Assembly (NCBI RefSeq): GCF_007997285.1
Contig: NZ_VORX01000003.1
Coordinates: 186,001-250,000, forward strand
Direction of reading: 5' to 3'
DNA: 64,000 nucleotides
Origin: Gelidibacter salicanalis
GTDB lineage: Bacteria > Bacteroidota > Bacteroidia > Flavobacteriales > Flavobacteriaceae
Below, piece after piece: positions 8,890-28,558 of the stretch (its first letter is position 1; the number at the start of each line of letters is the position of its first letter). The position numbers were made by a program, and so were the translations under genes. The notes beneath the pieces were generated by a model that searched no databases, was not told where the DNA came from, and saw nothing but the letters and a program-made list of their open reading frames with translations.

Positions 8890-10788
8890 ATGAGTGATGC
8901 GTTAAAACATGAGTGCGGTATAGCCCTCATCAGACTTTTAAAACCTTTAGATTACTATAAGCAAAAATATGGTAGTGCATTTTATGGCGTCAACAAGATG
9001 TACTTGATGATGGAAAAGCAACACAATCGCGGCCAAGACGGCGCAGGTTTTGCAAGTATAAAATTGGACACAGCTCCTGGCGAACGCTACATTAGCCGAG
9101 TACGCTCTATAGCACAACAACCTATTCAGGATATTTTTGCGCAAATAAACGAGCGCATCAATAAAGAATTGACGGAGCATCCTGAATACGCTGATGATGT
9201 TGACTTACAAAAAAAGAACATCCCCTATATAGGAGAATTACTTTTAGGCCACGTGCGATACGGAACTTTTGGTAAAAATAGTGTTGAAAATGTACACCCA
9301 TTTTTAAGACAGAATAACTGGATGCACAGAAACCTCATTTTGGCCGGAAACTTCAACATGACTAACGTGAACAAGTTATTTGAAGGCTTGGTCAAAATAG
9401 GACAACACCCGAAAGAAAAAGCAGATACCGTGACCATCATGGAGAAGATTGGGCATTTTTTGGATGATGCCGTAGCCAAAAAATACAAGCAGCTTAAAAA
9501 TGAAGGGTATAATAAAAACGAATGCTCACCATTAATCGCTGACCGATTAAATGTTGCTAAAATACTAAAACGCTCTGCAAAAGACTGGGATGGCGGTTAT
9601 GCTATGGCGGGACTTTTGGGTCATGGCGATTCTTTTGTACTTCGTGATCCTTCCGGGATTCGTCCGGCTTATTATTATCAGGATGATGAAATTGTAGTGG
9701 TAGCTTCTGAGAGACCAGTTATTCAAACCGTTTTTAACGTAGAGTTTGATGATGTTCAAGAACTTCCACCAGGACATGCCATCATTACCAAGAAATCAGG
9801 TGAAACTTCTATTAAAAAAATTCTAGAGCCTTTAGAACGTAAAGCTTGTTCTTTTGAACGCATATACTTTTCTAGAGGAAGTGATGCTGAAATCTATCAA
9901 GAGCGTAAAAAATTAGGTAAACTTTTGATGCCAAAAGTTTTGGAAGCTATTGATTATGATACCAAGAACAGTGTGTTTTCATATATACCAAATACTGCGG
10001 AAACGTCGTTTTTTGGAATGATTGAAACGGTTGAAGATCATCTTAACAAAAAGAAAACTAAAGCCATTCTGGAAGGTAATGGCGGCTTATCCGCTGAAAA
10101 GGTCACACAGATTTTATCTGAGCGGCCGCGCATAGAGAAAATAGCCATTAAGGACGTTAAGCTCCGCACCTTTATTACTGAAGATAGCAGTCGGGATGAT
10201 TTAGTAGCCCACGTTTATGACGTTACCTACGGCGTAATCAAACCCACAGACAATTTAGTTATTATTGATGACAGTATTGTACGTGGTACAACTCTAAAAA
10301 AGAGTATCATTAAAATGATGGACAGACTTCATCCTAAGAAAATAATTGTAGTGTCATCAGCGCCACAAATTCGTTACCCGGATTGTTATGGTATTGACAT
10401 GGCGCGATTGGAAGATTTAATCGCCTTTAGAGCAATGCTCGAATTGTTAAAGGAAAACGATAAATACCATCTTATTGAAGAGGTCTATCACAAATGTGTC
10501 GCTCAAGTGGAATTGGACGATAAAGACGTGCGTAATTTTGTGAAAGAGCTGTACAGTCAATTTACCGCGGAACAAATTTCGGACAAGATTGCAGAACTCA
10601 TTTGTGATTCCAGCGTGAAAACAGAGGTAAAAACCATATTTCAGACCATCGAAAATTTACATCTGGCCTGTCCTAAAAATTTAGGCGATTGGTATTTTAC
10701 GGGCAATTATCCAACAGCAGGAGGAAACCGTGTGGTAAACAAGGCATTTATCAATTTTTATGAAGGAAATAGCGCCCGTGCCTACTAA
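8890..10788 (+). CDS. PurF-like amidophosphoribosyltransferase, long form
   Basis: Two-domain enzyme predicted to release ammonia from glutamine and place it on PRPP. The product has 632 residues, well above the roughly 450-510 of standard PurF. The class II glutaminase domain begins HECGIALIRLL; the likely nucleophile is Cys9, so an eight-residue leader would have to be removed. NRGQDGAGF and GHVRYGTFG follow. The phosphoribosyltransferase loop VIIDDSIVRGTTLKKS starts at residue 457. Flavobacteria tend to have this long form besides a normal PurF (from memory), so the biochemical role is uncertain. It stands alone, with no purine genes beside it. Confidence 0.85.
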   Translation: MSDALKHECGIALIRLLKPLDYYKQKYGSAFYGVNKMYLMMEKQHNRGQDGAGFASIKLDTAPGERYISRVRSIAQQPIQDIFAQINERINKELTEHPEYADDVDLQKKNIPYIGELLLGHVRYGTFGKNSVENVHPFLRQNNWMHRNLILAGNFNMTNVNKLFEGLVKIGQHPKEKADTVTIMEKIGHFLDDAVAKKYKQLKNEGYNKNECSPLIADRLNVAKILKRSAKDWDGGYAMAGLLGHGDSFVLRDPSGIRPAYYYQDDEIVVVASERPVIQTVFNVEFDDVQELPPGHAIITKKSGETSIKKILEPLERKACSFERIYFSRGSDAEIYQERKKLGKLLMPKVLEAIDYDTKNSVFSYIPNTAETSFFGMIETVEDHLNKKKTKAILEGNGGLSAEKVTQILSERPRIEKIAIKDVKLRTFITEDSSRDDLVAHVYDVTYGVIKPTDNLVIIDDSIVRGTTLKKSIIKMMDRLHPKKIIVVSSAPQIRYPDCYGIDMARLEDLIAFRAMLELLKENDKYHLIEEVYHKCVAQVELDDKDVRNFVKELYSQFTAEQISDKIAELICDSSVKTEVKTIFQTIENLHLACPKNLGDWYFTGNYPTAGGNRVVNKAFINFYEGNSARAY

Positions 10789-10901
10789 GCTGGAAACTAG
10801 CTAAATATGCTGATCATCCGAAAAAAAACCGTTTAATCGGATAATTAAGCACTTCATCTAAAAATTAATTGACTTATTAAATTTCACTCTACATTAGCAA
10901 T
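10789..10901. other. Intergenic region before the first small RNA
   Basis: Holds a weak five-pair hairpin just after the PurF-like stop (ATCCG...CGGAT near 10817-10844) without a T-run, and the promoter of the first small RNA. No open frame is supportable. Confidence 0.5.
10869..10897 (+). promoter_or_regulatory. Promoter of small RNA copy 1
   Basis: TTG at 10869-10871, an 18-bp spacer, then TACATTAG at 10890-10897 (one mismatch to TAnnTTTG). The conserved RNA begins five bases after the -7 element, the same distance as in copy 2. Confidence 0.6.
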
Positions 10902-10974
10902 ACCATAACATAAGTAGGTTAAGTTCATGGTAGATTTGGGGCAAAAAAAGGTAAACTTCGGTTTGCCTTTTTTT
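10902..10974 (+). ncRNA. Tandem small RNA, copy 1
   Basis: About 73 nt. It starts ACCATAAC and contains ATGGT, which can pair with the 5' ACCAT to close a loop of about 17-20 nt. Then come a conserved single-stranded-looking stretch (AGATTTGGGGCAAAAAAA) and a terminator hairpin GGTAAAC-TTCG-GTTTGCC followed by seven T. Copy 2, exactly 250 bp downstream, is identical over the first 44 nt but for one base. Its terminator stem differs by two compensatory A-U to G-C changes, so the RNA structure is conserved. A coding explanation fails because the A-run differs by one base and shifts any frame. It may belong to the flavobacterial Flavo-1 RNA class (Rfam RF01705); I could not check this. Confidence 0.8.
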
Positions 10975-11139
10975 ATGCACTTCTATTTTGCAACATTGCC
11001 TGAACTTCAGAATTCGCATCTCGCAATCAAGTGCTTAGCACGATAAAATTTTAAATTCCTGTTTCTTACTTATTATTTCATTCAGCCCAATTTATACGCC
11101 GTTTAACTAATAAATTAAAGTATTGCTAAACTATGCACG

Positions 11140-11147
11140 TATATTTG
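11140..11147 (+). promoter_or_regulatory. -7 element of small RNA copy 2
   Basis: TATATTTG, an exact TAnnTTTG match, ends five bases before the conserved RNA start at 11152. A -33 TTG at the best spacing is not present (TTG at 11123 is too close at 14 bp). Confidence 0.65.
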
Positions 11148-11151
11148 CTTC

Positions 11152-11222
11152 ACCATAACATAAGTAGGTTAAGTTTATGGTAGATTTGGGGCAAAAAAGG
11201 TGGACATTCGTCCGCCTTTTTT
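11152..11222 (+). ncRNA. Tandem small RNA, copy 2
   Basis: About 71 nt, with the same 5' block as copy 1 (one C to T change at 11176 and one A fewer in the A-run). The terminator stem GGTGGAC-ATTC-GTCCGCC is followed by six T. The stem keeps all seven pairs while two pairs and the loop sequence differ from copy 1. Expressed from its own promoter. Downstream to sodA (11223-11364) I see only a degenerate repeat of GGTATCT-containing segments and no gene. Confidence 0.8.
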
Positions 11223-11420: not shown

Positions 11421-12029
11421 TTATTTCGCTTCTGCGTAACGTCGCTCAACTTCACTCCAGTTGATCACATTGAAGAAAGCGCTAATATAATCAGGTCTTT
11501 TATTCTGATATTTTAAATAGTAAGCGTGTTCCCAAACATCCAATCCTAAAATTGGTGTTCCACCACATCCTACACCTGGCATTAATGGATTATCTTGGTT
11601 TGGAGTTGAACAAATTTCAACTTTTCCACCTTTTTGTACGCACAACCAAGCCCATCCTGAACCAAATTGAGTGGCAGCAGCTTTGCTAAATTCATCCTTA
11701 AATGCATCTACTGATTTATAGGCAGACTCTATGGCTGCCTTAAGATCTCCAGACAATTCTTTCTTACCCTCGGGATTCATCACTTCCCAGAAAAGAGAGT
11801 GGTTATAGAATCCACCGCCATTATTTCTAACAGCCTTATTATCCATTTCTAAATTGATCAAAATATTTTCGATAGTTTTTCCAGCCATATCAGTTCCTTC
11901 AATAGCGCTGTTCAATTTATCTGTATACCCTTGATGGTGTTTAGTATGATGTATTTCCATTGTTTTTGCATCAATATGAGGCTCTAAAGCGTCATATGCA
12001 TATTTTAATTTCGGTAATTCGAAAGCCAT
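11421..12029 (-). CDS. sodA: Superoxide dismutase (Fe/Mn family)
   Basis: Disproportionates superoxide to hydrogen peroxide and oxygen. The product has 202 residues, full length, with no signal peptide, hence cytoplasmic. Metal ligands are visible: His27 in [12 protein letters not shown], the His of YNHSLFW, and the Asp and His of [17 protein letters not shown]. The segment [14 protein letters not shown] is typical of the family. I cannot decide between Fe and Mn from the motif alone; sodA and sodB are both used in Flavobacteriaceae. A -7 element lies at 12068-12075 and a terminator follows. Confidence 0.95.
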
Positions 12030-28481: not shown

Positions 28482-28558
28482 TGGTGGAGAAGATCGGGCT
28501 CGAACCGACGACCTCTTGGCTGCCAGCCAAGCGCTCTAGCCAACTGAGCTACATCCCC
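28482..28558 (-). tRNA. tRNA-Ala (anticodon GGC)
   Basis: The minus strand folds as a complete cloverleaf. The acceptor GGGGATG pairs with CTTCTCC (one T-T mismatch) and has the G3-U70 wobble that marks alanine tRNAs. The anticodon stem CTTGG/CCAAG holds loop CTGGCAG, anticodon GGC. The T arm is GGTTCGAGCCC. The discriminator is A, and the DNA encodes CCA (28484-28482). The 3' 43 bp are repeated at 20989-21031: the gene is the integration site, and its 3' half comes from the element. Confidence 0.95.
28484..28526 (-). repeat. attR: 43-bp direct repeat inside tRNA-Ala
   Basis: Exact match to 20989-21031. The crossover lies somewhere within this block, from the anticodon loop to the 3' end. 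Confidence 0.92.

What the first reader, a model, noticed from the sequence alone, without database searches (positions are those of the whole stretch)
10869..11222. Two tandem small-RNA genes with a covarying terminator stem
Two copies about 72 nt long lie exactly 250 bp apart. Each has a -7 element ending five bases before the RNA. The first 44 nt differ by one base. The terminator stems (GGTAAAC/GTTTGCC and GGTGGAC/GTCCGCC) keep all pairs despite two compensatory A-U to G-C changes and a different loop. The intervening DNA is unrelated, so selection acts on the RNA. A coding role fails because the A-run (7 against 6) shifts the frame. Both RNAs keep the same single-stranded stretch (TAGATTTGGGGCA), a natural seed for target mRNAs. 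They may belong to a known flavobacterial motif such as Flavo-1 (RF01705) or to a new family.
Basis: partly seen in the sequence, partly recalled or inferred. Interest (0 to 1): 0.82.

Follow-up and report, generated by a model that had tools for sequence, protein, structure and literature searches.

The report
Tandem small RNAs, small-protein target
Two neighbouring small-RNA genes belong to an RNA family widespread in flavobacteria that I found in no library searched, and their most conserved stretch can pair with the start of a distant gene for a tiny uncharacterised protein, which they probably switch off.

Summary
In detail: two sRNA-like genes (10902-10974, 11152-11222) with TAnnTT[AT]G boxes, a 44-nt block differing at one base, and covarying terminators. 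They are not Flavo-1; no Rfam family reaches its cut-off. A covariance model finds strong matches in 40 of 50 listed genomes of the window's family, Flavobacteriaceae. Arrays of 1-6 copies lie between purF and a superoxide dismutase gene.

The best-supported target lies 287 kb away: an unnamed ~41-aa ORF after scoB, ending LTKK(I/L)FM(L/F). Its leader and AUG pair with the sRNA 5' domain: -38.0 kcal/mol, rank 1 of 1002 start regions. In 32 loci pairing beats 100 of 100 shuffles each. Transitions from perfect complementarity keep G-U pairing 43 times and break it 3 times, besides 42 transversions. dN/dS is about 0.38. I infer translational repression.

Limits: no expression data; most of the 32 loci were found through likeness to the sRNA; pairing is patchy in type-B lineages; 9 of 19 sRNA-bearing genomes checked by synteny lack the ORF after scoB, so other targets are likely. 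It works like Bacteroides FopS but fails that family's test.

The parts
8890..10788 (+). purF-like gene (amidophosphoribosyltransferase; name recalled), conserved upstream neighbour of the array
   Evidence: ORF of 632 aa; tblastn finds it beside the array in 91 of 103 loci, others often cut by contig or locus ends
10890..10897 (+). -7 box of copy 1, TACATTAG
   Evidence: sequence; TAnnTT[TA]G in this place in 111 of 152 non-redundant copies against 0 of 304 control windows
10902..10974 (+). sRNA copy 1 (predicted ends)
   Evidence: CM R1 86.2 bits, fold z -3.9
10902..10931 (+). 5' hairpin of copy 1 with conserved loop AUAAGUAGGUUAA
10932..10942 (+). open seed AGAUUUGGGGC of copy 1
   Evidence: unpaired in MFE and consensus folds
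10943..10974 (+). intrinsic terminator of copy 1
11140..11147 (+). -7 box of copy 2, TATATTTG
   Evidence: sequence
11152..11222 (+). sRNA copy 2 (predicted ends)
   Evidence: CM R1 96.4 bits (copy 2 is among the sequences R1 was built from), fold z -4.4
11152..11181 (+). 5' hairpin of copy 2
11182..11192 (+). open seed AGAUUUGGGGC of copy 2
   Evidence: unpaired in the MFE fold except its first A in one variant; pairs with the small-ORF leader
11193..11222 (+). intrinsic terminator of copy 2
11421..12029 (-). superoxide dismutase-like gene (name recalled), conserved convergent downstream neighbour
   Evidence: ORF of 202 aa; found in 82 of 103 loci

Best explanation
The two genes encode copies of a ~71-nt trans-acting base-pairing sRNA. 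The family is conserved in Flavobacteriaceae and absent from Rfam at its cut-offs. Each copy has its own promoter and terminator. The open AGAUUUGGGGC probably makes first contact with a CCCCAAAUCU site some 20-30 nt before the start codon of a small mRNA. Pairing then spreads through the 5' hairpin until the loop's CAUAAGU covers ACUUAUG. This should block translation of a conserved ~41-aa protein encoded after scoB. Shown by computation: the genes, conservation, synteny, promoter boxes, predicted pairing with its evolutionary signature, and coding constraint on the small ORF. Inferred: that both RNAs are made, that they meet, and that the outcome is repression. Further targets are likely.
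For: Duplex -38.0 kcal/mol ending on the AUG, rank 1 of 1002 start regions of G000; net co-fold -29.2 against -6.9 +/- 2.7, 0 of 199 other genes as low. 32 of 32 loci beat 100 of 100 shuffles; transitions keep G-U pairing 43 times, break it 3 times. Second site in the coding part: Asn AAT 32 of 32, Leu CTA 30 of 32. dN/dS about 0.38, pN<pS in 491 of 496 pairs. Loci beside scoB/oppDF/exonuclease in 30 of 30. [AT]ATGTTAA 67-68 nt before a NATnTT[AT] box upstream of the ORF in 23 of 32. Five genomes without a found sRNA have neither the ORF after scoB nor a duplex better than shuffles.
Against: No expression or binding data. Most of the 32 loci were found through likeness to the sRNA, so the energies are biased upward; the loci share ancestry. 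42 transversions also occur. 1 of 1001 sampled genes has an equally long helix. 9 of 19 sRNA-bearing genomes checked by scoB synteny lack the ORF there, among them 5 of 5 sampled g48 genomes, and only 7 of 19 have a duplex beating all 60 shuffles, one of them away from the ORF. Other Leu codons in these ORFs are CTA in 39 of 187, so CTA is less rare there than genome-wide. The ORF has no match in the libraries searched.
Confidence: 0.74

Rival explanations
1. The sRNA is a broad regulator of many mRNAs, for example outer-membrane transporters as FopS is in Bacteroides, and the small ORF is only its most visible target.
For: The sRNA persists where the ORF was not found after scoB (9 of 19). 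The second-ranked start region in G000, -35.8 kcal/mol in broken helices, belongs to a 970-aa TonB-receptor-like gene (likeness recalled, below the SusC cut-off). A 62-aa ORF in G000 starts in a -33.1 site. FopS acts on susC start regions (PMC11697453).
Against: No clear excess of seed complements in 1001 start regions: the best 7-mer, ACTTATG, 23 against 10.6 expected, is also a plausible start context. In 11 of 18 SusC loci where an ATG was found the first-ATG duplexes were -7.7 to -14.5 kcal/mol; 7 of 18 gave none.
Confidence: 0.35
2. The small-ORF mRNA is chiefly a sponge that titrates the sRNAs, its leader and coding sites serving as decoys.
For: Up to three sRNA-complementary units in some leaders; a conserved promoter-like region of its own.
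Against: The main site sits on the start codon; the ORF shows coding constraint.
Confidence: 0.12
3. The RNAs bind and titrate a protein rather than an mRNA (CsrB-like; recalled analogy).
For: The 5' block, loop included, is near-invariant, more than a seed alone would need.
Against: Extended complementarity to one start region with a wobble-keeping pattern of change is not expected.
Confidence: 0.05
4. The conserved block is a promoter or a peptide-coding repeat, not an sRNA.
For: TAGATTTG fits TAnnTTTG; an ATG lies in the block.
Against: 128 of 226 copies carry one extra A, which breaks box spacing and frame; tail lengths differ; every copy in the window has a box before it and a terminator after it.
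Confidence: 0.02

Closest known systems
FopS, family of paralogous sRNAs of Bacteroides (Rfam RF04319; PMC11697453: abstract, sections 7 and 8, and passages seen)
   Same: Multi-copy ~65-70-nt sRNAs, own promoters, intrinsic terminators, pairing at start codons; the Rfam consensus shares UUCAUGGU..AGAUUU with ours.
   Different: 20.0 bits against a cut-off of 56; predicted 5' hairpin instead of a single-stranded 5' end; fixed tandem array at purF; main predicted target is a small-protein mRNA, not susC.
Trans-acting type I antitoxin RNAs (OrzO, IstR and the like; recalled, listings only)
   Same: Small RNA with long complementarity to the leader of a mRNA for a very small protein.
   Different: RNA and ORF are 287 kb apart in G000, RNA genes are several, toxicity is unknown and the protein is amphipathic rather than clearly transmembrane.
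LhrC tandem sRNAs of Listeria (recalled)
   Same: Tandem sRNA copies with the same seed.
   Different: Unrelated phylum, sequence and targets as far as recalled.
Rfp sRNAs of Flavobacterium psychrophilum, such as Rfp18 (PMC9723704: passages seen, including most of the abstract)
   Same: Flavobacterial sRNAs, some conserved across species; this family may be among the 85 described.
   Different: Rfp18 pairs through a third stem-loop; ours has two. Sequences could not be compared; purF and superoxide do not occur in the main text.

Membership tests
FopS (RF04319) | Covariance-model score at or above 56 bits | tested here: not met
   19.5-20.0 bits for copy 1; no FopS match at E<=2 in six type-B copies; 0 of 148 phylum genomes above cut-off
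FopS (RF04319) | Single-stranded 5' stretch bearing the R1' seed | tested here: not met
   5' hairpin predicted
FopS (RF04319) | Multi-copy, ~65-70 nt, own promoter, terminator hairpin | tested here: met
FopS (RF04319) | Pairs with susC start regions | tested here: inconclusive
   No duplex below -14.5 kcal/mol at the first ATG in the 11 of 18 SusC loci with an ATG; a TonB-receptor-like gene ranks second
FopS (RF04319) | Binds RbpB | not testable with these tools
   needs protein binding data
Flavo-1 (RF01705) | Match to the Rfam model | tested here: not met
   absent at gathering and at E<=5
Type I toxin-antitoxin | RNA with extended complementarity to the mRNA of a very small protein | tested here: met
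   predicted duplexes
Type I toxin-antitoxin | RNA and toxin genes adjacent or overlapping (usual) | tested here: not met
   287 kb apart in G000
Type I toxin-antitoxin | Small hydrophobic, toxic protein | tested here: inconclusive
   best 18-aa mean hydropathy 0.67-1.14 in three proteins, amphipathic; toxicity not testable; no Pfam, NCBIfam or PADLOC match for the members tried
Rfp18 of F. psychrophilum | Sequence identity | not tested
   sequence not held; only passages of PMC9723704 seen

The most novel reading that the evidence does not exclude
A chromosomally split sRNA/small-protein switch running through much of a bacterial family: a tandem array of antitoxin-like RNAs beside purF keeps a membrane-active or regulatory ~41-aa protein, encoded far away after scoB, silent until the RNAs fall. 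Copy number and the separate promoters of the copies would set the dose. It would be a trans type-I-like module in Bacteroidota.
Probability: 0.2. Interest if true: 0.8.

Novelty: new member of a known kind. Interest (0 to 1): 0.62.

Why it matters
Base-pairing sRNAs with a traceable target are, to my knowledge, scarce in Bacteroidota outside Bacteroides. This gives a compact, nearly invariant sRNA family at a fixed genomic address in a large environmental family, a predicted target site on a start codon, and a conserved small protein matching no family searched. All of it is directly testable in one strain.

Tried and rejected
Rejected or negative: Flavo-1 and other Rfam families; the weak matches to STnc40, sraA and the like lean on the terminator. 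Exact anti-start complements AAATCTACCATGAA and AAATCTTACCATGAA hit mostly the sRNA genes themselves, plus a few other places (two in the small-ORF locus; G005:C56 and G002:C6 not followed). SusC leaders: nothing strong. No clear general excess of seed complements in start regions. Viral-contig scan with one exact 21-nt pattern: 0. Plasmid BLAST: no match. My first reading of the second locus as a forward-strand multi-seed RNA was dropped when the reverse strand showed an ORF, a promoter-like region and G-U-keeping changes. Sites with 12 or 13 of 13 seed-complement bases in nine genomes: 20 fetched stretches and three loci were looked at, mostly inside or between genes with no start codon nearby; a 62-aa ORF in G000 and two sites in G015 stay open, and the rest of that list was not followed.

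Replaced or failed: alignment A1 misaligned terminators and was replaced by A2. One search stopped with an error; one search did the count with a Markov expectation instead of shuffles. One search read minus-strand loci on the wrong strand and was replaced. The type count used a wrong pattern and was replaced.

Rows dropped: 2 truncated copies and all exact duplicates (hence 76 of 80 named loci); 2 of 226 copies without exact GATTTGGG; A2 holds 47 copies with a 32-nt tail, one misaligned copy left out. Target statistics use 32 of 41 loci; nine failed my ORF pattern, at least one by a different last residue run (L337) and one with an interrupted frame (L333), left as is.

Full report
What is there. 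Two copies of a ~71-nt element lie head to tail at 10902-10974 and 11152-11222, between a purF-like gene and a convergent superoxide dismutase-like gene (gene names recalled from the protein sequences). The first 44 nt differ at one base, the flanks are unrelated, and a TAnnTT[AT]G box ends five positions before each start. Each copy folds into a 5' hairpin, an open AGAUUUGGGGC and an intrinsic terminator (z -3.9 and -4.4).

How widespread. BLAST with copy 2 found matches at E<1e-5 in 29 of 36 same-family genomes (the window's own counted), often several in tandem. The named genera are Flavobacteriaceae such as Winogradskyella, Zobellia, Maribacter, Flagellimonas, Aquimarina, Lacinutrix, Flavobacterium and Salegentibacter; some records say only Flavobacteriia, Bacteroidetes or Bacteroidota. 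G009 shares its contig length with Zobellia uliginosa NZ_FTOB01000001.1, which places the window's family. I extracted 226 distinct copies. In 76 named loci there are 1, 2, 3, 4 and 5 copies in 33, 16, 14, 11 and 2 loci; G009 has six. Of 103 loci, 61 show purF, SOD and the next helicase-like gene, 13 purF and SOD, 17 purF alone, 8 SOD and helicase, 4 none; loci are short, so missing neighbours are not proof of absence. Two types differ by one A after ATGGT: 94 type A, 128 type B, 4 other.

Model R1 was built from 47 copies. In 296 genomes of the order, 50 same-family genomes are listed: 40 match at E<1e-12, 7 only weakly, 3 not at all; 145 further non-matching genomes are not listed. The best match elsewhere is 46.5 bits (E 1e-7, G262) and was not examined. 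In 296 phylum genomes nothing outside the family exceeds 35 bits; many weak hits fall on both strands, as terminators would.

Structure. In the 47-copy alignment 96.4% of cells pair against 92.1% in shuffles, and 8 of 13 terminator pairs change on both sides. The 5' helix is 99.2% paired but nearly invariant, with one pair changed on both sides. Covarying terminators are expected of any intrinsic terminator; the telling feature is the invariant 5' block.

Promoter. TAnnTT[TA]G stands in a fixed 14-nt window in 111 of 152 non-redundant copies, against 0 of 304 control windows. A weaker element, TT...C.AAAA..TTTT, lies between about -50 and -33 of the start; it may bind an activator (inference).

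Finding the target. Weak BLAST matches fell at a second locus between a scoB-like gene and an exonuclease- or oppDF-like gene. A sequence profile of it (R2) gave 30 fetched loci among 120 family genomes; the call's 71 matching genomes include matches to the sRNA arrays themselves. All 30 loci have scoB, oppDF or the exonuclease beside them. On the strand complementary to the sRNA-like units lies a small ORF, usually 40-42 aa; in the window's own genome MNIAQNLPKPTLSRNKFVEAFQETVHLLKSVFLLTKKLFMF, at about G000:C18:484043-484168, 287 kb from the array and outside the window. In 21 aligned proteins N6, L7, K36, K37, F39 and M40 are invariant. Four members have no Pfam or NCBIfam match and two no PADLOC match. 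Three of four PDB hits are helical proteins with designed-looking names, which suggests no more than an amphipathic helix. dN/dS is about 0.38 in 336 of 496 pairs with pS<0.7, after the NLP motif.

Pairing. In G000 this start region gives the best duplex among 1002 (1001 genes called in 1.25 Mb, plus itself): -38.0 kcal/mol, 18 pairs, two unpaired bases, 10 pairs, ending on the AUG; the next gene has -35.8 in broken helices. One of the 1001 genes has as long a helix. With whole molecules the net gain is -29.2 against -6.9 +/- 2.7 for 199 other genes, none as low. Over 32 loci the mean is -41.7, and all beat 100 of 100 shuffles. Because most of these loci were found by likeness to the sRNA, the direction of change is the better test: transitions from the perfect complement keep G-U pairing 43 times and break it 3 times (C>T 32 of 296, G>A 0 of 52, A>G 11 of 362, T>C 3 of 334), with 42 transversions besides. 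The loci share ancestry, so these are not independent events. A second site spans codons N-L-P: Asn is AAT in 32 of 32, Leu is CTA in 30 and CTG in 2; CTA is 7.9% of Leu codons in the genome sample and 39 of 187 of the other Leu codons in these ORFs. Upstream of the ORF, [AT]ATGTTAA stands 67-68 nt before a NATnTT[AT] box in 23 of 32 loci, far more often than at any other spacing, so the ORF probably has its own regulated promoter.

Results against. I looked after scoB in 24 further genomes, most chosen because they had failed earlier searches, and at five weak loci. Of 19 sRNA-bearing genomes 10 have an ORF with this kind of ending (one, G028, only loosely) and 9 do not, among them all five sampled genomes of the large genus g48, perhaps Flavobacterium. 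Duplexes beat all 60 shuffles in 7 of 19, one (G028) away from the ORF. Of the five genomes, all type B, three do; G190 is matched by 1 of 60 shuffles and G009 by 17. Of the five genomes in which I found no sRNA, none has the ORF and none has a duplex beyond its shuffles. So pairing is strong around the window's relatives, weaker or rearranged in type-B genomes, and absent at this site in some. Further targets must exist there. In G000 a 62-aa Cys-containing ORF starts in a -33.1 kcal/mol site, untested in relatives. No clear general excess of seed complements was seen near starts.

Mechanism. The simplest reading is translational repression: AGAUUUGGGGC contacts CCCCAAAUCU before the start codon, the 5' hairpin opens, and the loop covers the AUG. 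Several copies would set dose and allow separate control. What the small protein does is unknown; its amphipathic, Lys-containing end fits a membrane-active or a regulatory peptide.

Comparison. FopS of Bacteroides (PMC11697453; abstract, sections 7 and 8, passages) works alike: many copies, own promoters, start-codon pairing. As a family assignment it fails: 20 bits against 56 and a different 5' structure. Rfp18 (PMC9723704; passages) pairs through a third stem-loop; sequences could not be compared. Searches for an earlier description listed none that I recognised; they cover open-licence PMC papers only, and of the rest I saw listings alone.

Noticed in passing
window 28485-28558 (-): A tRNA gene is the only Rfam gathering-level match in the window.
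   Followed up: no
L425 around 1500-1706 (G000:C22:161096 onward): A 62-aa ORF (MATYKCRKCGIHKN...) starts right after an exact CCCAAATCTACCA; predicted sRNA duplex -33.1 kcal/mol. A possible second target.
   Followed up: partly
L408 at 1501 and L438 at 812 (G015): Two places with exact CCCAAATCTACCATAACTTACCT followed by a long inverted repeat, beside similar ORFs on the other strand; duplexes -37.1 and -41.5 kcal/mol. Possible mobile-element target or decoy.
   Followed up: partly
last copy of several type-B arrays, e.g. L023 2676, L155 1406: The copy next to SOD has its own conserved upstream sequence (CACAATACCAGTA.TTTAG) and GGGAC instead of GGGGC, hinting at separate regulation of that copy.
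   Followed up: no
L046 1997 and 10621 (G013:C13): Two further sRNA-like copies with GGGTA instead of GGGGC lie away from the purF array, about 8.6 kb apart.
   Followed up: no
L029 about 1515 (G022:C72): A divergent copy keeps the outer stem and AGATTTGGGGC but has a different loop.
   Followed up: no
G262:C26:4321-4387 (-): The best model match outside the window's family, 46.5 bits, E 1e-7.
   Followed up: no
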